From Acytostelium subglobosum LB1 (taxonomy: Eukaryota; Evosea; Eumycetozoa; Acytosteliales; Acytosteliaceae): DNA of 64,000 nt. The stretch covers positions 312,001 through 376,000 of the forward strand of contig NW_012236509.1 of NCBI RefSeq assembly GCF_000787575.1, given 5' to 3'. Of this stretch, positions 21,088 through 34,327 are shown piece by piece. The translations under genes were made by a program, and so were the position numbers. A model generated the notes under the pieces. It saw only the letters and a list, made by a program, of their open reading frames with translations, was not told where the DNA came from and did no database searches. Every line of letters begins with the position of its first letter. The stretch's first letter is position 1.

Positions 21088-21264
21088 AAGAACGCGAGTT
21101 GGCGAGTCAATATGGTGTGGCGTGGCGGCGTGGCGCTCAACAAACAAATAACACAATCCAATCACTTTTGGTTGGAGATAAGATTACCCATTCAATCAAT
21201 TAGTTGTTTGATCGATCAATCATAGACATAGTACTTTATTTCGATTGAATAAATGAATGAATGA

Positions 21265-23698
21265 TTACTGGAATTCGAAGGAATCAAGTGTTGGTAGAGT
21301 TGGGGAAAGTCCCTTCCTGGTCCTGATGGCCTTGACGATCTTGTTGGAAGGACTGCCCTCAAAGAATGGGTTATTATCGATAACTACCCAATTACCAAAG
21401 ACAACTTGCACCTGGGCTTTGTCATTGGTGTCTGCCTGAATCTTTGGAATGAATCCGAATGAGTGAGCAACAGGTATCTGGACACGGATTACAGTCAGGT
21501 CTTTGTTGGTGTAGTGATCAAGCTCCTCTTCAAGACTACCTTGATGCTGGACTGTTATATGCATGATTGAATCGGAAATTGAATGAGGAACCGTGACTTC
21601 AATATTGTAGAATGGCTCCTTTGGACAAACGGACCCAGCCAAATGAGCTCCAAGGAGTGCACGCTTTGCAGCAGGGATGATCTGACCGTCTCCACAAAGG
21701 GCTACATCCGAGCTGATCTTGGCCTCGGTGAGGTTGAACCTGACTCCTCTCATTGGCTCATCACATAGTGATCCCTGGCTGGTGACAGATTGGAAGGATT
21801 GAATGATCGAGTCCATAACCAAATAGTTTTTAGCCAAGTTGACCAAGATGTTGGTGCCATATCCATTAGGTCCAAATGAACAAATTGCCTTGATATGATC
21901 GGCCTCCCATTCAGAATCTTGGAATCTCTTGGGTCTATCGACTATGTTAACAGCCAATTGCTCAGACTCGATGTAGGGGGCCAGCTCATTGACTATTGGT
22001 TCTGACTTAAAGGTCATACTATTCTTCTTGTTGGACGACGTGGCAATGGAAGTCATTGACTGATCGGATACCGTCTCACAGTAGCATGTCATTGGTGTAG
22101 ACGATGTGGTCTCGACACTAACTCGTAGAAGGTCAGCTAAGTATTGGTCAAGGGTCTGTTTAGTTGGACCACCGATCAAGGCCTCCCCATCACGGATGAC
22201 TGTTGTAGAAATGACATCGCTATTGCCATTGGCCTTGTATTTTTCATTGAACTTGGTCAGAGATGCTGACTTTACAGTGATGGTCATTGATACCAAAGGT
22301 GCCATTGAGTACTTGATTGTCGAAATTGTTCTTGCCTTATCAGAGTTGGTCAGGGTGCTGGTCTTAGAAACTCCAGTATCAATGCCAACCAGAGCGACGA
22401 GGTTACCAGCGGGACAGGACTCGATGGTGATCTCTCCAAGGCCATTCAACACTACAAGCTTTGATATTGTTTGTGTGGACACCACCAGAGTTGGTGACTG
22501 GGTCGTATTGTGGTGGCAACACTCTCACCTTCTGGCCTGGCAGGACAAAACCAGAGAACACACGACCATAGCTGTACACGGTACCAGTTGTCGATCGGAC
22601 GACCTTGCTCACTTGGAAGAACATAGGTCCATTTGAGTTGCATTGTTGTATGACTTGGAGGTCCACCTTATCAACCGTTCCATTGCCTCCGTACAACTTG
22701 TTAGTACGGATTCCTTGGGAGGTCACTGGTGATGGGACCTTCTGAACAACCATTCCAAGAACACATTGCTCAAGATTGAATAACTTCCTCATGACAAGTG
22801 GGGCCAGTTGGTTGGAGGGGAGTGCCTTCTCGCTCTCAGTTAAGTTGATCTTCAATCTACTCTCAACCTTTGGATTGGCTGGATCCTCTAAGAGCACTTT
22901 CAAGGAAGTGAAGAGCAAATAAGTGAAGCCACGAACCGAACCTGAAGTGAGCTTAGTAGACCATTCCTTGGCATGAATGTCAAAGTAGTTGTCGCCCCAC
23001 AACTTGGGAACACCAGAAATACCCTCAGTGGAGGTACCGATGGTCTTCTTGGCCCATATGTCCAAAGTGAAACCCCATCCTTGTTCCACGTTGCCAAATG
23101 CGACATTTAAAGCCAATGGGTCCAGTGAGGGTGAGGACAACGATGATGATGATCCAATGATATTGTTGTACTTTGACAATATGTTTGATAGTTCGAGGTA
23201 GGTATTCTCTCCATCCATCATCATTTGATAGATCAATCGATCTATTTTGTTGATGAACAATGTTGGAACGATTCCATTGTCGATGGCCTGGCGAAGTGCT
23301 TTGGAGGTGGTGGCACTCACCTCTCCAATTGGATCGACAACGAACAGGGCACCATCACTTATCGAGAGGGCGCGGGCCGACCCGCTAGAGAGGTCGAGAT
23401 GAGATTGGGCATTGATGGCATTGATCAAGAATTCTTTGCCCTTGGTCGACTCTGGTAGCTGAACAGTGGAATCATTCTCTTTGTAATGAAGCGGGATGCT
23501 GGAGAGCTCGCCAGTGGATGAACCTTGCTGACCAACTATAGTTGCAGTCTCTGAGTCACTTGTGATACTGTAATTGGCCAAGTGTCCAAACAAGATATCC
23601 TTTCTCTCACCAAAGTTATCAACTATTGCAACATTACGAACATTGTTGGTGTTGATCAACAACTCTTTCAATTTATCATTGTTAACTTTAAATACCAT
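21265..23698 (-). CDS. Degenerate eEF2-like translation factor paralogue, one apparent frame slip
   Basis: The reading frame from ATG 23698 and a second frame entering near 22500-22470 together cover the whole length of elongation factor 2 (about 810 residues; eEF2 about 840). Recognisable stretches: NVRNVAIV, SDGALFVVD, NKIDRLI, GWGFTLDIWAKK, LPSPVTSQG, FGRVFSGFVLPGQKVRV, then ESCPAGNLVALVGID, CFGPNGYGTNILV, GQIIPAAKRALLGAHLAG and VAHSFGFIPKIQADTND. The GTPase signatures are gone: the P-loop HVDHGKST position reads VDNFGERKDI, DSPGH is lost, and only NKID survives. The diphthamide loop DxIHRGGGQ reads DVALCGDGQ, so the modified His is Leu. The two frames differ by one base near 22470-22500; no intron of normal size fits. 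It is either a sequence error in a live pseudo-GTPase gene or an ageing pseudogene. Confidence 0.85.
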
Positions 23699-25765: not shown

Positions 25766-27062
25766 ATCATCGTTTGATCGTTTGATCGTTAGATCATTTG
25801 ATTGATCGTTCGCAAGGCCCCAACGACGCATCATTGTGCAAGTCAATGATGATTGATTAGGTTGATCATTCGTCAAAGTTCGTAAGACATTCATACCTTA
25901 TATCAAGGACTGACTAATTTTAGACAACATTAGGGCCACTCGAGTTGCCAAGCAAGTCAGGTGAATGGGGCAACATTCATTCTCGATCTTACTATTACCT
26001 CTGGAACACCAGTTCATAGTTCTGGGCGATGGAATCGACTTCCCATCACCTTTGCCCCAAACTAACCAACAAACATCAAGCAAGCAGTAGTACTTAATAA
26101 ACTTGCATGAATGAATGAATGAATGAATGACATTGTACAAGGTATTTGGACATCTTTAGAAGTATGTGATGTTAGTGATAATTTACTCAGTACCCTGACC
26201 AGTATGACTGGTCAGATGTTCAATACACCATCCAACCAAAACTATTTTTATCCGCCGATTCGATGACCAAACGATCAATCAAACAAACACCACGCACAAC
26301 ACCACTTCGATCACACCCACCTTTTTGTTTGAAGAAGTGTGTGTATCATGATGGAAAAACGGGGGAAAGTGGGAATCCGATGCTTATGCTGATCAATAAT
26401 GAGTGAGGTAGAGCATATGGATATATAATTCGGACGAGTTAGAGCCCCCATCAATGGGTCAAACAGTGTTAGCCCCTTCTTACACAATTTGTACATGTGT
26501 TTAGTTTGGGGGCAGATCAGGAATGTTCTTGGGAACTCGTGGTAACACAACTTATCATTCATTCATTCACAGGCAGGCAACTACAACAAAGTTGAAGCCT
26601 TATGGATAGAGGTCTGATTGTTTATATTGGCACATCTGGTTAATGACATTCGTTGAAGTTGGCAGGGTTAGGGCAGACCGGGATGAGAAGTGAAGGTTCA
26701 TCATCACCCACGGACAGTCACTGATCATTCATTTATTGAAACAAACCATGAACAAGTGTTCTAACTACTTCAACCAATAATATACATAACTTTCATTTAC
26801 ATTTTTGGAAATACCAAGTCTAGTCTTTGACTTAACATTCCTACTTCTATCCCTCCATCCCTCCCTTTTTCACCAACATCCTTCCCCAATTGCACCAAAC
26901 GAATACTATTTATTCATCCTTTCAATCATCACTTAACCATTCAATCAAATATTTAATCAATTATATTGTACATACTTCTTCTAAGTTATACATTTTATCG
27001 ATCATTCTCATTCACTAAATCACTCCCTCATCCAATCAACTAATTAAATAATTTATTCCAAA
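25766..27062. other. Intergenic region upstream of the polyketide synthase
   Basis: About 1.3 kb with no supported gene. It holds GAATGAATGAATGAATGA (about 26107-26129), a perfect hairpin at 26195-26215, and an AT- and CATT-rich final 250 bases with pyrimidine tracts that probably form the synthase promoter and 5' leader. Confidence 0.55.
26195..26215. repeat. Perfect 9-base hairpin
   Basis: CTGACCAGT-ATG-ACTGGTCAG: two 9-base arms around a 3-base loop, in non-coding sequence. Role unknown. Confidence 0.5.
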
Positions 27063-30000
27063 ATGGACAACAATAATAATAATATTAATGAGAATGATAT
27101 TGCCATCATTGGAGTTGGAATGCGTTTTCCTGGAGGTGCCGACGCCTGCATAAAGAATGCTGATCAACTTTGGTCAAAATTGAAGAATGGTGAGGATTGC
27201 CTTAGTCAACTACAACCAACACGTCTTGCTAAGTCATACTACGACCAGGAGTTGATCACCAACTGTGCAGGAGGATTCTTGCCCGACGAGGAGTGGCGGA
27301 CATTTGATCCAACCTTCTTTGGAATCACCAAGATGGAGACTGAGCAGATAGATCCACAGATTCGTCTGCTTATGACGGTGGTCTGGGAGTCCATCGAGGA
27401 TGCCCAGCTCAAGTATGAGACTGTGCGTGGCAGCAACACTGCCGTGTTCATCGGTACAATGACACAAGGTTACAAACAGATTGTAAACTCAGAGATCACT
27501 GATATGGACCCGTACTCATTGGCTGGAAACATTCTTACATTCATGTCCAATCGACTGTCTTATGCATTTGACTTCCGTGGACCTTCACTCACTTTGGATA
27601 CTGCATGCTCTTCATCACTCAATGCTGCCCTTCTTGGATGTCAAGCAATCAGATCTGGAGCCAGTGAAATGGCTATCGTAGGTGGTGTTAACGATCTTCT
27701 AGAGTGCTCGCCAACAATCCTTCTCAGCAGCATTGGTAAGTCGATCACTCACTGGAATGATTCCAATCACTCTAGATCAAAATTTTTGAACCATAATATC
27801 AATCAACTTGTTGCACGACCACTCAATCATTAGAACATTCGCGAATCTAGTTCAATCACTAACATAAATCAATCAATCAAATATTCAATCAAATACATAA
27901 ATAGGTGCCCTGAGCAAGACTGGAAAGTGTCATTCATTCGATGCCTCAGCTGATGGATATGTTAGAGCTGAAGGTGCTGGTGTGTGCCTTTTGAAGAGGT
28001 ATAGCTCAGCAGTGAAGGATGGCAATAGGATATATGCTGTGATCAAGGGTGGCAGCACAAATGTTGATGGCTTCAACGACAAGTCATCACTGACTGCACC
28101 ATCGGGTACTGCTCAAGCCGAGAATGTCAAGTTTGCCTTGAAGGATGCCGCCTCATTAGCCTCTGACATCTTCTACGTCGAGGCACATGGCACTGGCACA
28201 CCTGTTGGCGACCCCACCGAGGTGGGCGCGCTGGCCAAGGTGTTTAGCGAGACTCGCAAGTCTGATGATCCACTCAACATTGGATCGATCAAGTCCAACA
28301 TGGGACATCTTGAGGCTGCTGCTGGTGTGGCCTCGCTGATCAAGGTCAGTCTAATGCTCAAGAATCGTATGCTCATGCCCAGCATCAACTTTAATCAAGC
28401 CAACCCAAGCATCAAGATGGATGAGTGGAAGGTACGCGTGGTCACTCAGCCCACGCCCTTACCCAAGGACCGCGTCATCAAGATGGGCATCAACTGCTTC
28501 GGTCTCGGTGGCTCCAACTGCCATCTCATTCTCGAGGAGCATGTTCCAACAAAGGTATGTTTGATTGATTAAGTGATTGATTGAGTGTCCCACGACTAAC
28601 TCCCCCCTTCATCAATCAAAGATGGTCCAGACTCAGACTCAGGTGATCGAATCAGTCCCACGTCAATACCTTATTCCATTCTCTGGAAACTCAAAGGTGT
28701 CTGTGGACAAGTACATTGAGTCAATGCGATTGGATGTTGACCTTCAGGCAAAGGTACCATTTGATCAATTCGTCCGCCATCAGATCGAATCAAAGTCACA
28801 CTTCCCATCAAATAGAAGAGTGTTGGTGGCCCAGTCGTGGGAGCAGCTTAGTGATCAATCGACACCAATGCAGCAGTTCAGCGCATCGTCCACACCCTCA
28901 ACATTGGCATCATTCAGTCGCAAACAATCACATCCTATTGTGTTTGTATTCTGTGGTCAAGGACCACAATGGACTGGTATGGGACTGGAGTTGTACAACA
29001 ACAGTCCAGTGTTCAAGGCTGCAGTTGATCAATGTGACTCCATGATGGCCAAGCACTTCCACTACTCCATTCTCAACACGATCAGGACGCTGCCGGACGA
29101 CCGCGCTGCCGACATCCATCACCCCATCCTCGCGCAGCCATCGATCTTCCTTATCCAAGTCGGTCTGGTCGCCCTCTACAATCACTGGGGCATTCGCCCA
29201 TCGATTGTAGTTGGACACAGCTTTGGCGAGGTCACCGCAGCTCTATGCGCCAACTTCATCAGCCTCGAGACTGCATGTATGATCGTGTATCATCGCGCCA
29301 CACTCCAGAACTCAACAATTGGCAGTGGCAGGATGTTGTCCGTGGGCATTGGCGAGGTGGCCTACAACAAGGACTACTCGGCGCGCTACCCCACACTGGA
29401 GATTGCATGCTACAACTCGCCCGACTCAATCGTACTCACTGGAGATGAGGCAGACCTCATGGCCATCACACAAGAGCTCAAGGCCCAGAGTGTGTTTGCC
29501 ATCATGCTCACCACCCCCTGCTCATTCCACTCGTCCAAGCAAGAGTCCATTCGTCAAAAAGTGATGGAGACTGCTGATCTCCAAGAAATCAACTACATGG
29601 ACAATGATGAGAATGGTGCAGTCTACTTCTCGACGGTCACTGGCGAGGTCATGACCAACAAGCAGGACTACAATGTCAAGTACATCTTTGACAACTTGCG
29701 CGAACCAGTACACTTCAACAAGGCCATCACAAACATCTATGCTCACATCGCCGAGAATAAGTTGGGCACGTCACCAGTCTTCTTGGAGATTGCACCACAT
29801 CCAACTCTGGCATTCTACATCAAGAAGGCAGTCCCAGTCCCAAGCGCATTCAACAACATCAAGTTCAACCCATTGGTCGTATCATCACTTCATCGCAAGG
29901 ATGGCGATGTAGAGACACTCCACAAAACCCTCACAAGCGTATACTTCCATGGTGTGGACATCGACTTCTCATGCCAACTCAAAGTGGCCGCAACATCAAA

Positions 30001-33000
30001 CTGGCAAGAGACCACCTCGTGCATACCAGGCTACCAGTGGGACGCCAATCAATATTGGACCGAGCCTTTGAGATCCAAGAAGACTCGTCTGGAAGGCCCA
30101 ACCAACAATCATTTAGGTCATCGCATTCAATCATCCAACGCAGGAGGCATATCATATCTCGCGTTGATCGATGTCGCCAAGCGTCCATTCGCATTCCTCA
30201 AGGGACACAAGATCAAGGGTCAGTCCCTGTTCCCAGGCACTGGATACGTGGACAACATCCTGCGCGCATTCCGCGACCGCGATGTATACATCCACTCGTT
30301 GGACTTCAAGTACCCATTCTTCCTCAAAGAGGGCACATTCAATCATCTGCAGACCAACTTCATAGAGTTGGACAACAAGTCCGTGTTCCGTGTCGAGTTC
30401 CTTATCCGCGAGAATCACAACACTGAGGAATGGACACGATCAGCACTTGGCCGCATCTCTGTCCACCAGCCCATGCAACCGCACCAGGTGCCCAAGGTCA
30501 ACGTGGCCGCCCTGCGCGCTAAATGCAACTTGGCCACACTCACACACGAGCAAGTCTACCAGAAGATCCGTCCATCGGGCATCGAGTTTGGCGAGTCATT
30601 CAGCCGTATGAAGTCAGCGGCCATGGGCAAGGACTGCTGCCTGTCCACCATCATGGTCAACCCACCAGTGTCTGAGTATGATGTGGACACATTCTTCAAC
30701 ACACCAATCTTGGACAGCTGTGCCCAGGGTCTGATCGCGCTGATCAACCCAACCGAGCTGGTATTCGAAGGTGTCTCGGGCATGAAGGTGTACAACTGCA
30801 ACCTGCCCAAGACCAGACCGGAGCACATCTACGTGTTTGTGCGCCTGCTCACCAACTCTGGCAACACATGCACTGGTGATTGTCAAGTGTTCCTAGAGGA
30901 TGGCACACTCTTGATGCAAGGTGAGCGCATGGTATGTCACTACCTCAAGCGCACCAAGGATATTGTTCCAAAGAACCCATCAAAGTACTTGTTCCAGCAA
31001 CAATGGCAGCCAAAGGAGTTGTCGCGTATGGTCACTGGCACCACTGGAGCTTCCGTCTCACAGCTGCTGGGCGATACATTGGCCTCAGTTTCCAAGACTT
31101 CATCATCACCATGTATATTCAAGATACTGGATCTCACAGACCAGACTCAACAAATCGAGTTGTTGGAGACTGCCCACCAATCAATCAAACTCAATCAATC
31201 AATCAGCATTGAGTATTCAATCCCCACGATTGATGGTCAGCCTCTTGACCTCGGCCTGTCCACGATCCAGGAGAGTGAGACATTCAAGATCAAGTTCAGG
31301 ACTGCCATCAACCATGAAGTCGACCTCACCCCTCAAGGATACCTCCCAGCCAGCTTCGACCTGATCATCACAAACAACCAACTTGTTGATCAAGACCTGT
31401 CCACACTCCTCACGCCCAGTGGACAACTCGTTACCATCACGCCCAACCTCAAGATTACCCAACGACCAAGGATTGATCAGTTGCCCGCGGTCAAGGATGT
31501 CGACAGGATTGTGTTTGTGATAGCTTGCTCGGACAACCCTGCGGTCAAGGAGCTGGAGTGCCACTTCACAGAGCAAGGCCTGCTCAGCTCAAACAAGATC
31601 GAAGTGTTCAAGTCATGCCACTTCATCGATGAGGCCACAGCAACATTGTCCGAACAACAATTGATCAAGTTCATTGGAGGTGGTGGCGAAGACTCCCAAG
31701 CACCATCCAAATGCTCAATCATATTCCTGGCGGGATTGGAACCACTTGGCTCGGACAACTACCTCAAGAGGACAATGGAGTACGTCCGAATCAATCAAAT
31801 ATTGTTGCGCAACAGAGTGACCAACACCAACGTCGTGCTCACTACGATGGGCACACAAGATCAGTCGAGCAACTACTTTAACTCATCATTGGTTGGCATC
31901 TTTAGATACTTCCTCGAGTTCCAAGATTCATTCTCATCAGTCTTTGTCGACTTGACCGAGTCCGCTGAACAGCCCTCGCTTGCCCTTGCAAAGCGCGTCA
32001 CTCTGGACTACCTCCTCCAACTCTCCCGCTTCGACCAGCTCAATGAGCGCGAGTACTCGCTCAGATTGGACACCAACAACCTGGTTGTGCCATACATCTG
32101 CAAGATCATTCCAAAGTTGGTCGCCAGTTGCTCTGCTCCAGACCGTGGTGAGGCCGACCAAGCATTGTACAGCAAGTTGAACAAACAACTCGAGTTGGAG
32201 TTCAGACCAAGGATGCAGGTGGCCAATGGACAGGTCGAGGTCAAGGTGATGGCTTCTGGTGTCCGCTCCAAGGACCGCTTGTTCGCCGATCCCAACGTCA
32301 GCCAAGACCTCATGCTCTCGGGACATGTCTACGATCCACCCTTTGGCTTTGAGTTCTCGGGCGTGATCACATCAACCTCATCAACATGCTCAAGGTTCAA
32401 GGTTGGTGATGAAGTCCTTGGTCTGGGCTTCGCCTCACTGGCATCTCATGTCGTGGTCAATGAAGAGTGGATCGTGGCTAAACCCAGGAACCTCACATTC
32501 GCACAAGCTGCATCATTCCCTGTGGACTACCTCACATCGTACATTGCAACATATGTCCAAGGCTACCTTGATGGTGACGACAGCGTGCTGATCATCGCCA
32601 ATGATGATGTGAATGCAAGTGTTGGCCGAGCCACTCTCAACCTGCTCCAACAGTCCAAGCACACTGGCAAAGTGTACATAACATGTAGCACACAACAACA
32701 TGCTCAATCACTCAAGCATCAATATGGGGCGATGTTGACCGATGTATTTGTTTGTGATCAAGATAAATCGCAACAACATAATATTGCTGGAACATACTCT
32801 GATGTGATATCTGCACGCGGTGGCGTCAACTTGGTCATCAACACAGGCAGTGGCAGTGGATCATCACTCAAGTCAACATTCGATTGTTTGGGTCAATGTG
32901 GACGCATCATTGATCTGTCCACCAGCAACTCAGTCGACAATGACAACATTAGTTGCAAGCAGTTCCAGCAACCACATGGCTACACAAGCTTCAATCTCGA

Positions 33001-34327
33001 GCAGTTGGCTATCAACAAACCCAAACTCATCCAGAGGTACCTCGGCCAGCTGACCCGCATGTTTGAGCAACAACAACTATCCATTGATAGCACACAGCTG
33101 CCCATCACTGTGTTCCCTGTCAGCGACATCAAGTTGGCATTCCAACCAATCAATGGACAAATGGGCAAGGTCGTGGTCGACTTCTCCACCTCCAGCACCA
33201 ACACCACCTCCTCGAACTACACACGTATGATGGACAGCATGCAAGGACTGCACAACATTGGCGAGACATTGTTGATCACTGGCCAGACAGGTATCGCAAT
33301 CGTTATATTGAGATGGATATTGGACAACAAGCCAAAGATGTTACGTGATGTGATTGTACTGTCACGATCAAGCCTAAAGTGGGAGTTGGAGTACATGATC
33401 AACAGCAACCTGGCAGCCAACGCTGGAATCAACATTCATTACCGATCAGTGGACATCTCAGACATTTCCGCAACACGATCAATAATTCAACAACTCTACA
33501 TCGCACATCCATTGATGGCCAAGGTCAGCTCAGTCATCCACTTTGCCGCCATGTACAACTACTCCGAGGTACAGAGCATCAGCAAGGACAGTCTGGCAAT
33601 GACCCATCAACCCAAGGCAGTCGGCGCTCACAACCTGCACACACTCTCACTCGAGTTCAAATGGGACTTGAAGAACTTTATCCTGTTCTCCTCGATCTTT
33701 GGCGTCATCGGATCATCCAATCAATCATCGTACGTGTCGTCCAACGCTGTGATGGACGGTCTTGCTCGCCATCGCCGTGCCCAAGGCCTGGCCGCAATAT
33801 CTGTCAACTGGGGCGCACTCGATGGTGGTGGCGAGGTCGTCAACAACCCCGCCGTGTCCAAGTTCCTCAGATCAATTGGCTTTGACCTGCTGTCCGTGTC
33901 CAACATACTTGGAGGCATGCAGATGTTCCTCAACAACCGCATGTCCCTGCCACAGGTGATGCTGGGACCACTCAACTTCAAGCCAATGTTCCAGATGTAT
34001 CCACACATGAGGATAGTGATGGAGTACCTGAGCAAGGTTGAGGATATCATACAATCATCCAAGGGACTATCGCTCAGTTGTAGCGAAGACGGTGCCAATG
34101 GCATCTTTGACATGATCTCAAAAAAGGTCACCGATCTACTCTCCATGGACAAGTTGGACAACAATGTATCCCTTAAGGACTATGGAGTAGACTCACTCCT
34201 AACAGTTCAACTCAAGAATTGGATCCAGCGTGAATTCAAAGTCAACTCATTCTCCACGCAACAAATAGCATCCAGCTCTATCAATTCACTCGTCCAGAGT
34301 ATCGAGTCAGCACAATCACAACAATAA
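27063..34327 (+). CDS. Type I iterative polyketide synthase, KS-AT-DH-(MT)-ER-KR-ACP
   Basis: Exons 27063-27735, 27905-28554 and 28622-34327, 2342 residues. Ketosynthase: DTACSSS (Cys), [14 protein letters not shown] and [11 protein letters not shown] (His), all present. Acyltransferase: FCGQGPQW and GHSFGE (Ser). Dehydratase: [16 protein letters not shown] (His) and DSCAQG (Asp). The next 400 residues occupy the methyltransferase place but lack a glycine-rich SAM motif; only FDLIITNNQ recalls it. Enoylreductase: [18 protein letters not shown] and the medium-chain reductase frame, but the NADPH glycine loop reads [11 protein letters not shown]. Ketoreductase: [31 protein letters not shown] (Ser, Tyr, Asn present). 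Acyl carrier: [11 protein letters not shown] (Ser) near the end. There is no thioesterase and no chalcone-synthase-like Steely domain. The product would be an unknown reduced or partly unsaturated chain. The domain order is the usual one for dictyostelid synthases. No tailoring enzymes lie beside it. Confidence 0.96.

What the first reader, a model, noticed from the sequence alone, without database searches (positions are those of the whole stretch)
21265..23698. eEF2-like protein lacking P-loop and diphthamide histidine
Along its whole length this gene follows elongation factor 2, yet the parts that make eEF2 work are replaced: HVDHGKST reads VDNFGERKDI, the switch regions are lost, and the diphthamide His is Leu (DVALCGDGQ). 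Only NKID of the G motifs remains. The domain II-V scaffold is well kept. A non-GTPase, non-diphthamide eEF2 mimic could act as a ribosome-binding regulator or hibernation-like factor. The frame slip near 22470-22500 leaves a pseudogene as the rival view.
Basis: partly seen in the sequence, partly recalled or inferred. Interest (0 to 1): 0.72.

Follow-up and report, generated by a model that had tools for sequence, protein, structure and literature searches.

The report
eEF2 relative without its GTPase
This social-amoeba gene is a far-diverged copy of the ribosome motor protein eEF2 that lost its GTP-binding and diphthamide sites while natural selection was still keeping it readable as a protein; in this assembly one extra base now breaks its frame, so whether it still works today is open.

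Summary
Minus-strand 23698-21265 encodes a full-length eEF2 homologue whose P-loop reads DNFGERKDI, whose G3 reads NAQSH and whose diphthamide His is Leu. One net +1 frameshift lies near 22470-22493.

The genome (it fits Acytostelium subglobosum) also holds a canonical eEF2 and, 65 and 81 kb away on the same contig, two open-frame eEF2 paralogues 94% identical to each other. The window gene groups with those two (support 81/92) on a very long branch (2.17; canonical 0.20).

It is not an old decaying copy. It has no in-frame stop in 809 codons although 65% of residues differ from the nearest paralogue; neutral simulation gave 4.5 stops at only 10% amino-acid change. A codon model rejects neutrality (2 delta lnL 37.5), though synonymous sites are saturated. 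The GTPase motifs were thus lost while the gene was still selected as a protein.

Corrections: domains II-V are only slightly better kept than the GTPase side (55% of shared residues in II+IV+V, 44% in G+III). A hibernation role is untested. V28F, seen here, is lethal in yeast eEF2, so a translocase role is unlikely.

Open: assembly error, recent death, or bypass of the shift. No orthologue or RNA data were available.

The parts
21265..23698 (-). eEF2-like gene (ATG at 23698, TAA at 21265-21267), 810 codons if read through one +1 step
22403..23698 (-). frame 1: G domain, G'' insert, first part of domain II (431 aa, P0001)
21265..22524 (-). frame 2: rest of domain II, domains III, IV, V (P0002, 419 aa; homology starts near 22490-22470)
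22470..22493 (-). zone of the frameshift: net +1 nt against L009, L010 and L013; no run of one base longer than three
23594..23620 (-). degenerate P-loop DNFGERKDI (eEF2 AHVDHGKST); of 8 invariant residues only the Lys is kept
23507..23578 (-). remains of switch I: in-frame deletion of about 14-15 residues and 6-residue insertion
23399..23413 (-). degenerate G3, NAQSH in place of DSPGH; the switch II His is kept
23240..23251 (-). intact G4 motif NKID
21697..21699 (-). Leu codon at the place of the diphthamide His (H699 in yeast)
   Evidence: position counted by hand
22459..22528 (-). possible but unproven 70-nt GT-AG segment (AAG|GTGAGAGT ... TATCAAAG|CTT) whose removal would restore the frame and delete 23 residues of domain II; one of 66 such pairs
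21235..21240 (-). AATAAA about 25 nt after the stop, poly(A)-signal-like
   Evidence: sequence; may be chance in AT-rich DNA

Best explanation
The gene is an old member of an eEF2 expansion in this genome. It lost the nucleotide-binding motifs and the diphthamide site while the rest was still selected as an eEF2-shaped protein: a pseudo-GTPase eEF2 paralogue. Shown here: full-length homology, the motif losses, long survival as a coding frame. Likely: kinship with the two open-frame paralogues. Inferred: it cannot run a GTP cycle and cannot act as the translocase (V28F and L536Q sit at sarcin-ricin-loop contacts). Its likely way of working was, and may still be, nucleotide-independent: a fixed eEF2-shaped body that sits on the ribosome through the partly kept domains II and IV, or that binds an eEF2 partner, rather than a motor. 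I put the ribosome-sitting form at about 0.3 and another protein-binding role at about 0.3. The single frameshift is recent or an assembly error, so present activity is about even odds.
For: Homology end to end; the 50 Foldseek matches listed are, by their titles, eEF2 or spliceosomal chains that I read as Snu114. No stop in 809 codons: neutral simulation starting from the window gene gave mean 4.5 stops and 0 of 60 stop-free runs at 0.05 substitutions per site, where 10% of residues had changed, whereas 65% differ from L009. With that figure, and residues taken as independent, the chance of losing 7 of 8 P-loop invariants is 7e-7. omega = 1 rejected, 2 delta lnL 37.5 over 787 codons. Differences from L009 by codon position .48/.39/.62, alike before and after the shift, so the second half is not more decayed. 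GC3 0.51 lies inside the range of ten neighbouring ORFs (0.48-0.68), against 0.24 and 0.38 GC in the two flanking intergenic stretches. It shares 16 of 107 states derived in L009, against 3 of 77 derived in four other rows (p 0.015). Canonical eEF2 with its His and two loci of the DPH1/DPH2 family are in the genome, so the cell probably makes diphthamide.
Against: One out-of-frame base in the only assembly seen. No expression, no orthologue tested. Synonymous sites are saturated (branch times at or near their bounds), so the omega values themselves (0.05 on the window branch) mean little. Losses are spread over the whole protein: nucleotide motifs 14 of 38 kept against 49 of 97 elsewhere in the G domain, p 0.18; only without NKxDR does it reach 0.028. 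The domain IV tip is not specially lost: 9 of 14 kept against 76 of 142, p 0.58. Of the same 107 L009-derived columns the window has the canonical residue in 25, so it left the L009 line early if at all. Sister grouping is moderate: 81/92, and 74/78 without Snu114; AU does not reject a union with Snu114 (p 0.070) and only just rejects one with canonical eEF2 (0.040). AlphaFold is poor in domains III-IV (mean pLDDT 62.3, pTM 0.56, 7 sequences), so a stable fold is not shown.
Confidence: 0.6

Rival explanations
1. Recently killed pseudogene: a divergent paralogue that was functional until a +1 frameshift, now without product or with a truncated 431-residue fragment. (This and the assembly-error and bypass rivals concern the gene's present state and are not exclusive of the best explanation, which concerns how it came to be.)
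For: The frameshift is present. Four stretches with frame breaks in conserved neighbours were looked at and none needed a coding error: two hold an intron with both ends, 67 and 69 nt, that rejoins the frame, and in the other two only an acceptor-like end lies in the stretch printed. That is a small sample.
Against: No second disabling change in 809 codons; the half after the shift is as conserved as the half before. It does not explain the motif losses, which must be older.
Confidence: 0.33
2. Old pseudogene decaying freely, as in the reader's rival view.
For: Half of the invariant eEF2 residues are gone across all domains.
Against: No stops, omega = 1 rejected, codon-position pattern, GC3 like genes.
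Confidence: 0.03
3. The extra base is an assembly or sequencing error and the frame is intact.
For: The rest of the gene reads in frame. The published A. subglobosum assembly mixes Sanger and Illumina reads (passages of PMC4334915).
Against: No run of one base longer than three in the zone; no such break in the four neighbouring stretches looked at. That the window is this species is inferred, and the published assembly has 106 supercontigs against 56 contigs here.
Confidence: 0.3
4. The shift is bypassed in the cell, by splicing out 70 nt (22528-22459) or by ribosomal +1 frameshifting.
For: AAG|GTGAGAGT is, to my eye and from general knowledge (not scored), the donor nearest the usual consensus among the 66 pairs; 70 nt is close to the two neighbouring introns of 67 and 69 nt.
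Against: 66 frame-restoring GT-AG pairs of 40-160 nt occur there; the segment still reads as domain II; both neighbouring introns carry CTAAC and this one does not; it would delete 23 residues of domain II. Reading through, by contrast, lets Pfam domain II pass its cut-off (32.2 bits against 30.3; 16.0 for frame 1 alone). No tool was run for slippery sites.
Confidence: 0.08

Closest known systems
Canonical eEF2 (own genome L013, C44; yeast 1n0u)
   Same: same five-domain chain, end to end; NKID, P-loop Lys, switch II His, S579 kept
   Different: P-loop, G3 and switch I lost; diphthamide His is Leu; 33% identity to L013; one frameshift
eEF2 paralogues L009 and L010 of the same contig (C33, 65 and 81 kb away)
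   Same: nearest relatives in the tree; 35% and 34% identity; 16 shared derived residues with L009
   Different: both have open full-length frames and the diphthamide His; L009 has an intact P-loop and DSPGH; L010 has V28E, DLPGH and a rewritten switch I block
aSelBL, archaeal SelB-like proteins (PMC3037878: abstract and section 10 read)
   Same: translation-factor paralogue whose G1-G5 motifs are degraded while the chain is kept
   Different: SelB family; orthologues across archaea; authors argue that ribosome and aminoacyl-tRNA binding are kept
Bacteroides EF-G2 (FusA2), described as lacking GTPase activity (title in the reference list and a passage of PMC12775393; passages of PMC6989115)
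   Same: second EF-G-type factor without GTPase activity
   Different: bacterial; said to catalyse translocation without GTP hydrolysis; conserved across Bacteroides; its motifs were not compared here
Second archaeal EF-2 copies lacking diphthamide residues (passage of PMC10307638 citing Narrowe 2018, which is not held)
   Same: EF2 paralogue without the residues for diphthamide
   Different: archaeal; the three Heimdall rows used here as outgroup keep HVDHGKTT, so the P-loop is intact there
Snu114
   Same: eEF2-derived protein whose reported role is not in translation (passage of PMC4342817); present in this genome (L014)
   Different: window gene starts at the eEF2 N-terminus and groups with L009/L010, though AU does not exclude a Snu114 union (p 0.070)

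Membership tests
eEF2 (GTP-driven translocase) | G, II, III, IV, V domain chain of about 840 residues | tested here: met
   Pfam GTP_EFTU, GTP_EFTU_D2, EFG_IV, EFG_C over cut-off; EFG_III is not listed even at E 0.1
eEF2 (GTP-driven translocase) | P-loop AHVDHGK[ST]T and G3 DSPGH | tested here: not met
   1 of 8 invariant residues kept in the P-loop, 4 of 12 in the G3 stretch
eEF2 (GTP-driven translocase) | NKxD (G4) | tested here: met
   4 of 4 invariant residues of NKxDR
eEF2 (GTP-driven translocase) | diphthamide His 699 | tested here: not met
   Leu
eEF2 (GTP-driven translocase) | sarcin-ricin-loop contacts V28, L536 | tested here: not met
   F and Q by alignment; V28F lethal in yeast (passages of PMC9830224)
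eEF2 (GTP-driven translocase) | GTP hydrolysis and translocation | not testable with these tools
   needs biochemistry
Pseudo-GTPase translation-factor paralogue (aSelBL-like, EF-G2-like) | G motifs degraded with the chain kept under selection | tested here: met
   selection shown for the past, not for today
Pseudo-GTPase translation-factor paralogue (aSelBL-like, EF-G2-like) | conserved orthologues with the same losses | not testable with these tools
   no other amoeba genome at hand; no match in 50,697 phage records with P0002 (P0001 not tried) or in viral contigs with the intact-eEF2 alignment A2
Pseudogene | at least one disabling change | tested here: met
   net +1 nt, if the base is real
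Pseudogene | neutral evolution, many stops and frameshifts | tested here: not met
Pseudogene | no transcript or product | not testable with these tools
   no RNA or protein data
Snu114 | grouping with Snu114 in a tree | tested here: inconclusive
   groups with L009/L010; AU p 0.070 for a Snu114 union

The most novel reading that the evidence does not exclude
A eukaryotic eEF2 paralogue that works today without GTP and without diphthamide, reached by stepwise GTPase loss among related copies on one contig: intact L009, switch-damaged L010, fully degenerate window gene. If the window protein binds the 80S ribosome it would be a natural nucleotide-free eEF2 mimic in a eukaryote.
Probability: 0.2. 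Interest if true: 0.72.

Novelty: new variant of a known kind. Interest (0 to 1): 0.47.

Why it matters
eEF2 is among the most constrained proteins of eukaryotes, and its GTPase and diphthamide are usually taken as inseparable from it (general knowledge). A copy that shed both while staying a selected protein gives a natural test of what the eEF2 body can do without its motor. The intact, half-damaged and fully degenerate copies on one contig could let the order of losses be read.

Tried and rejected
Gene conversion at the frameshift: 17 bases next to it are identical with L009, but identical runs of 18 and 15 occur elsewhere in the gene, so I dropped it. A 5-nt slippage deletion as the cause was dropped after counting: the net change is +1. 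An intron explaining the shift: 66 candidate GT-AG pairs, none decisive. Targeted loss of the GTPase alone: weak, p 0.18 to 0.028 by choice of motifs. In-frame indels as evidence of selection: 21 gap runs lie between window and L009 (2 in the shift zone, 1 at the C-terminal end), but a protein-guided alignment makes every gap a whole codon, so I do not count them as evidence. Relatives in viral contigs and phages: none. Repeats around L009/L010 to explain the duplication: nothing useful. First genome-contig scan with canonical eEF2: no relatives; the second with alignment A2 kept 80 of 572 loci, of which I used 5 (L051, L052, L084, L101, L121) and left 75, at 24-29% identity and nearly all bacterial by title. 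AlphaFold gave too weak a model to judge the nucleotide pocket. Literature: four searches (listings only) showed no title or abstract opening about such an eEF2 copy in dictyostelids; they cover open-licence papers only, and the listings were capped. The EMBO J 2023 paper on EF-G2 and Narrowe 2018 are not held, so they are cited only through other papers.

The codon model used 4 taxa and 787 of 898 alignment columns; 111 columns with a gap or N in any of the four were dropped. Branch times ran to or near their bounds. The invariant-residue counts used five rows (L009, L013 canonical, yeast, Chaetomium, L052); L051 (partial), L010 and Snu114 were left out.

Full report
WHAT IS THERE. On the minus strand from ATG at 23698 to TAA at 21265 lies a chain of two overlapping frames, 431 and 419 residues. 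Each piece matches eEF2 of solved structures along its length (E 1e-49 and 2.8e-59). Read through one +1 step, the 810-residue protein matches eEF2 at E 4.5e-112 over residues 57-807 in the best chain and over 9-806 in the next. Between two conserved points around the shift the window has 52 nt, while canonical eEF2 and both paralogues have 51.

WHERE IT COMES FROM. The window is C33:312001-376000 of a genome of 30.7 Mb in 56 contigs; the window's G+C is 44.4%. Size and composition fit Acytostelium subglobosum (30.9 Mb, 55% A+T, passages of PMC4334915), although the published assembly has 106 supercontigs and no tool named the species. The same genome holds canonical eEF2 (L013), Snu114 (L014), EFL1 (L012), two EF-G genes that I read as mitochondrial (L015, L011), and two further eEF2 paralogues on contig C33: L009 (401132-403645) and L010 (416505-419018), 65 and 81 kb from the window gene, 94% identical to each other and 53% and 50% to canonical eEF2. 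Over 787 codons the window gene is 35% identical to L009, 34% to L010 and 33% to canonical eEF2. A tree of 12 rows puts it with L009 and L010 (81/92) on an end branch of 2.17, against 0.20 for canonical eEF2. Without Snu114 the support is 74/78; AU p is 0.070 for a union with Snu114 and 0.040 for one with canonical eEF2. Sixteen of 107 residues derived in L009 are shared by the window, against 3 of 77 derived in four other rows; in 25 of the 107 the window keeps the canonical residue. I take the sister position as likely, not proven.

WHAT IS LOST AND KEPT. Of 291 residues invariant in five eEF2 rows the window keeps 148: P-loop 1 of 8, switch I 3 of 10 (alignment unsure), G3 stretch 4 of 12, NKxDR 4 of 4, G5 stretch 2 of 4, domain III GELHLEI 1 of 6, the two domain IV tip loops 7 of 11. 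His 699 is Leu; Lys 32 and His 108 are kept. The loss is general with a tilt to the GTPase side: G+III keep 101 of 231 shared residues, II+IV+V 103 of 187 (p 0.024, grouping chosen after looking; with the motifs taken out 89 of 189, p 0.12; five domains p 0.17). In a yeast study V28F, V28K and V28D are lethal, and L536 and R66 also touch the sarcin-ricin loop (passages of PMC9830224). The window has F at 28 and Q at 536; G at 66 depends on the uncertain switch I alignment. A translocase role is therefore very unlikely. S579, where all attempted substitutions were lethal, is kept.

WAS IT SELECTED. Codon positions differ from L009 by 0.48, 0.39 and 0.62, with the same pattern before and after the shift. 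A four-taxon codon model rejects omega = 1 on the window branch, 2 delta lnL 37.5, but synonymous time is saturated and the fitted 0.05 should not be quoted as a rate. The firmer argument is the open frame: neutral drift starting from the window sequence gives a mean of 4.5 stops at 0.05 substitutions per site, with 0 of 60 runs stop-free and 10% of residues changed; at 0.03 about 2 of 60 runs were stop-free. The gene has 0 stops in 809 codons. With the 10% figure, losing 7 of 8 P-loop invariants after inactivation has probability 7e-7. So the motifs were lost while the gene was still a selected protein. GC3 is 0.51, within the 0.48-0.68 of ten neighbouring ORFs and above the 0.24 and 0.38 GC of the two flanking intergenic stretches.

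THE FRAMESHIFT. It can be an error, a recent null change or something bypassed. Four stretches with frame breaks in conserved neighbours (two in a polyketide synthase, one in MLH1, one in trehalose phosphate synthase) look like ordinary introns: two hold introns with both ends, 67 and 69 nt, that rejoin the frame, and in the other two only an acceptor-like end was printed. Sixty-six GT-AG pairs of 40-160 nt would restore the frame in the window gene; the one with, to my eye, the most typical donor removes 70 nt and 23 residues of domain II. Reading through instead lets Pfam's domain II pass its cut-off, 32.2 bits against 16.0 for frame 1 alone. That favours an intact protein in the recent past and says nothing of the present.

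STRUCTURE. AlphaFold with 7 sequences gave pLDDT 62.3 and pTM 0.56, good in much of the G domain and part of II, poor in III and IV. The 50 Foldseek matches listed are, by their titles, eEF2 or spliceosomal chains that I read as Snu114, with query TM 0.51-0.59. This agrees with homology; it does not show stability.

L010 AS A MIDDLE STATE. L010 has V28E, S103L (DLPGH) and a block of about 33 bases in switch I unlike L009, in an otherwise near-identical open frame. Outside residues 46-61 there are 61 base differences in synonymous codons and 48 in 40 residue-changing codons, and the duplicate pair's fitted omega is 0.18 (0.29 in the G domain). It may be a second copy on the way to losing its GTPase. 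This is an inference from one pair.

KNOWN PARALLELS. aSelBL in archaea is a translation-factor paralogue with degraded G1-G5 (PMC3037878, abstract and section 10). A Bacteroides EF-G paralogue without GTPase activity is cited in PMC12775393 (passages). Archaeal second EF-2 copies lack diphthamide residues (passage of PMC10307638). Several, often highly divergent eEF1A and eEF2 versions are mentioned for Naegleria (passage of PMC4342817). The window gene combines both losses in a eukaryotic eEF2. Four searches of open papers listed no report of it (listings only).

VERDICT. The pseudo-GTPase reading is right for the gene's past; its present state and any ribosome role are open.

Noticed in passing
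L010:2006-4519 (C33:416505-419018): Near-copy of L009 with V28E, DLPGH and a rewritten block of about 33 bases in switch I, yet a full open frame; V28D and V28K are lethal in yeast eEF2 (V28E itself was not seen in the passages).
   Followed up: partly
L009:4690-5040 and L010:536-1435: hAT/BED-type transposase-like reading frames (named from memory by look, no search run) lie beside the L009/L010 pair, with a long N stretch after L009; a mobile element may have helped the duplication.
   Followed up: no
window 27048-34324 (+): Polyketide synthase gene in three reading-frame pieces (ketosynthase, acyltransferase, dehydratase, ketoreductase, ACP by Pfam) with short introns.
   Followed up: partly
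L084:2586-4577, L101:2580-4568, L121:2589-4574: Heimdallarchaeal EF-2 copies whose domain IV lacks the diphthamide motif as read by eye, with HVDHGKTT intact; probably the known second archaeal EF-2.
   Followed up: no
L051 and L052: Contigs of about 3 kb filed under Gluconobacter and a Bacteroidetes MAG encode eukaryotic-looking eEF2, so they look like contaminants; in L052 the C-terminal half precedes the N-terminal half, as in a tandem gene array or a circular join.
   Followed up: no
G000:C25:284445-285692 and C39:586930-588308: Two loci of the DPH1/DPH2 family (PF01866), so diphthamide synthesis is probably intact in this genome.
   Followed up: partly
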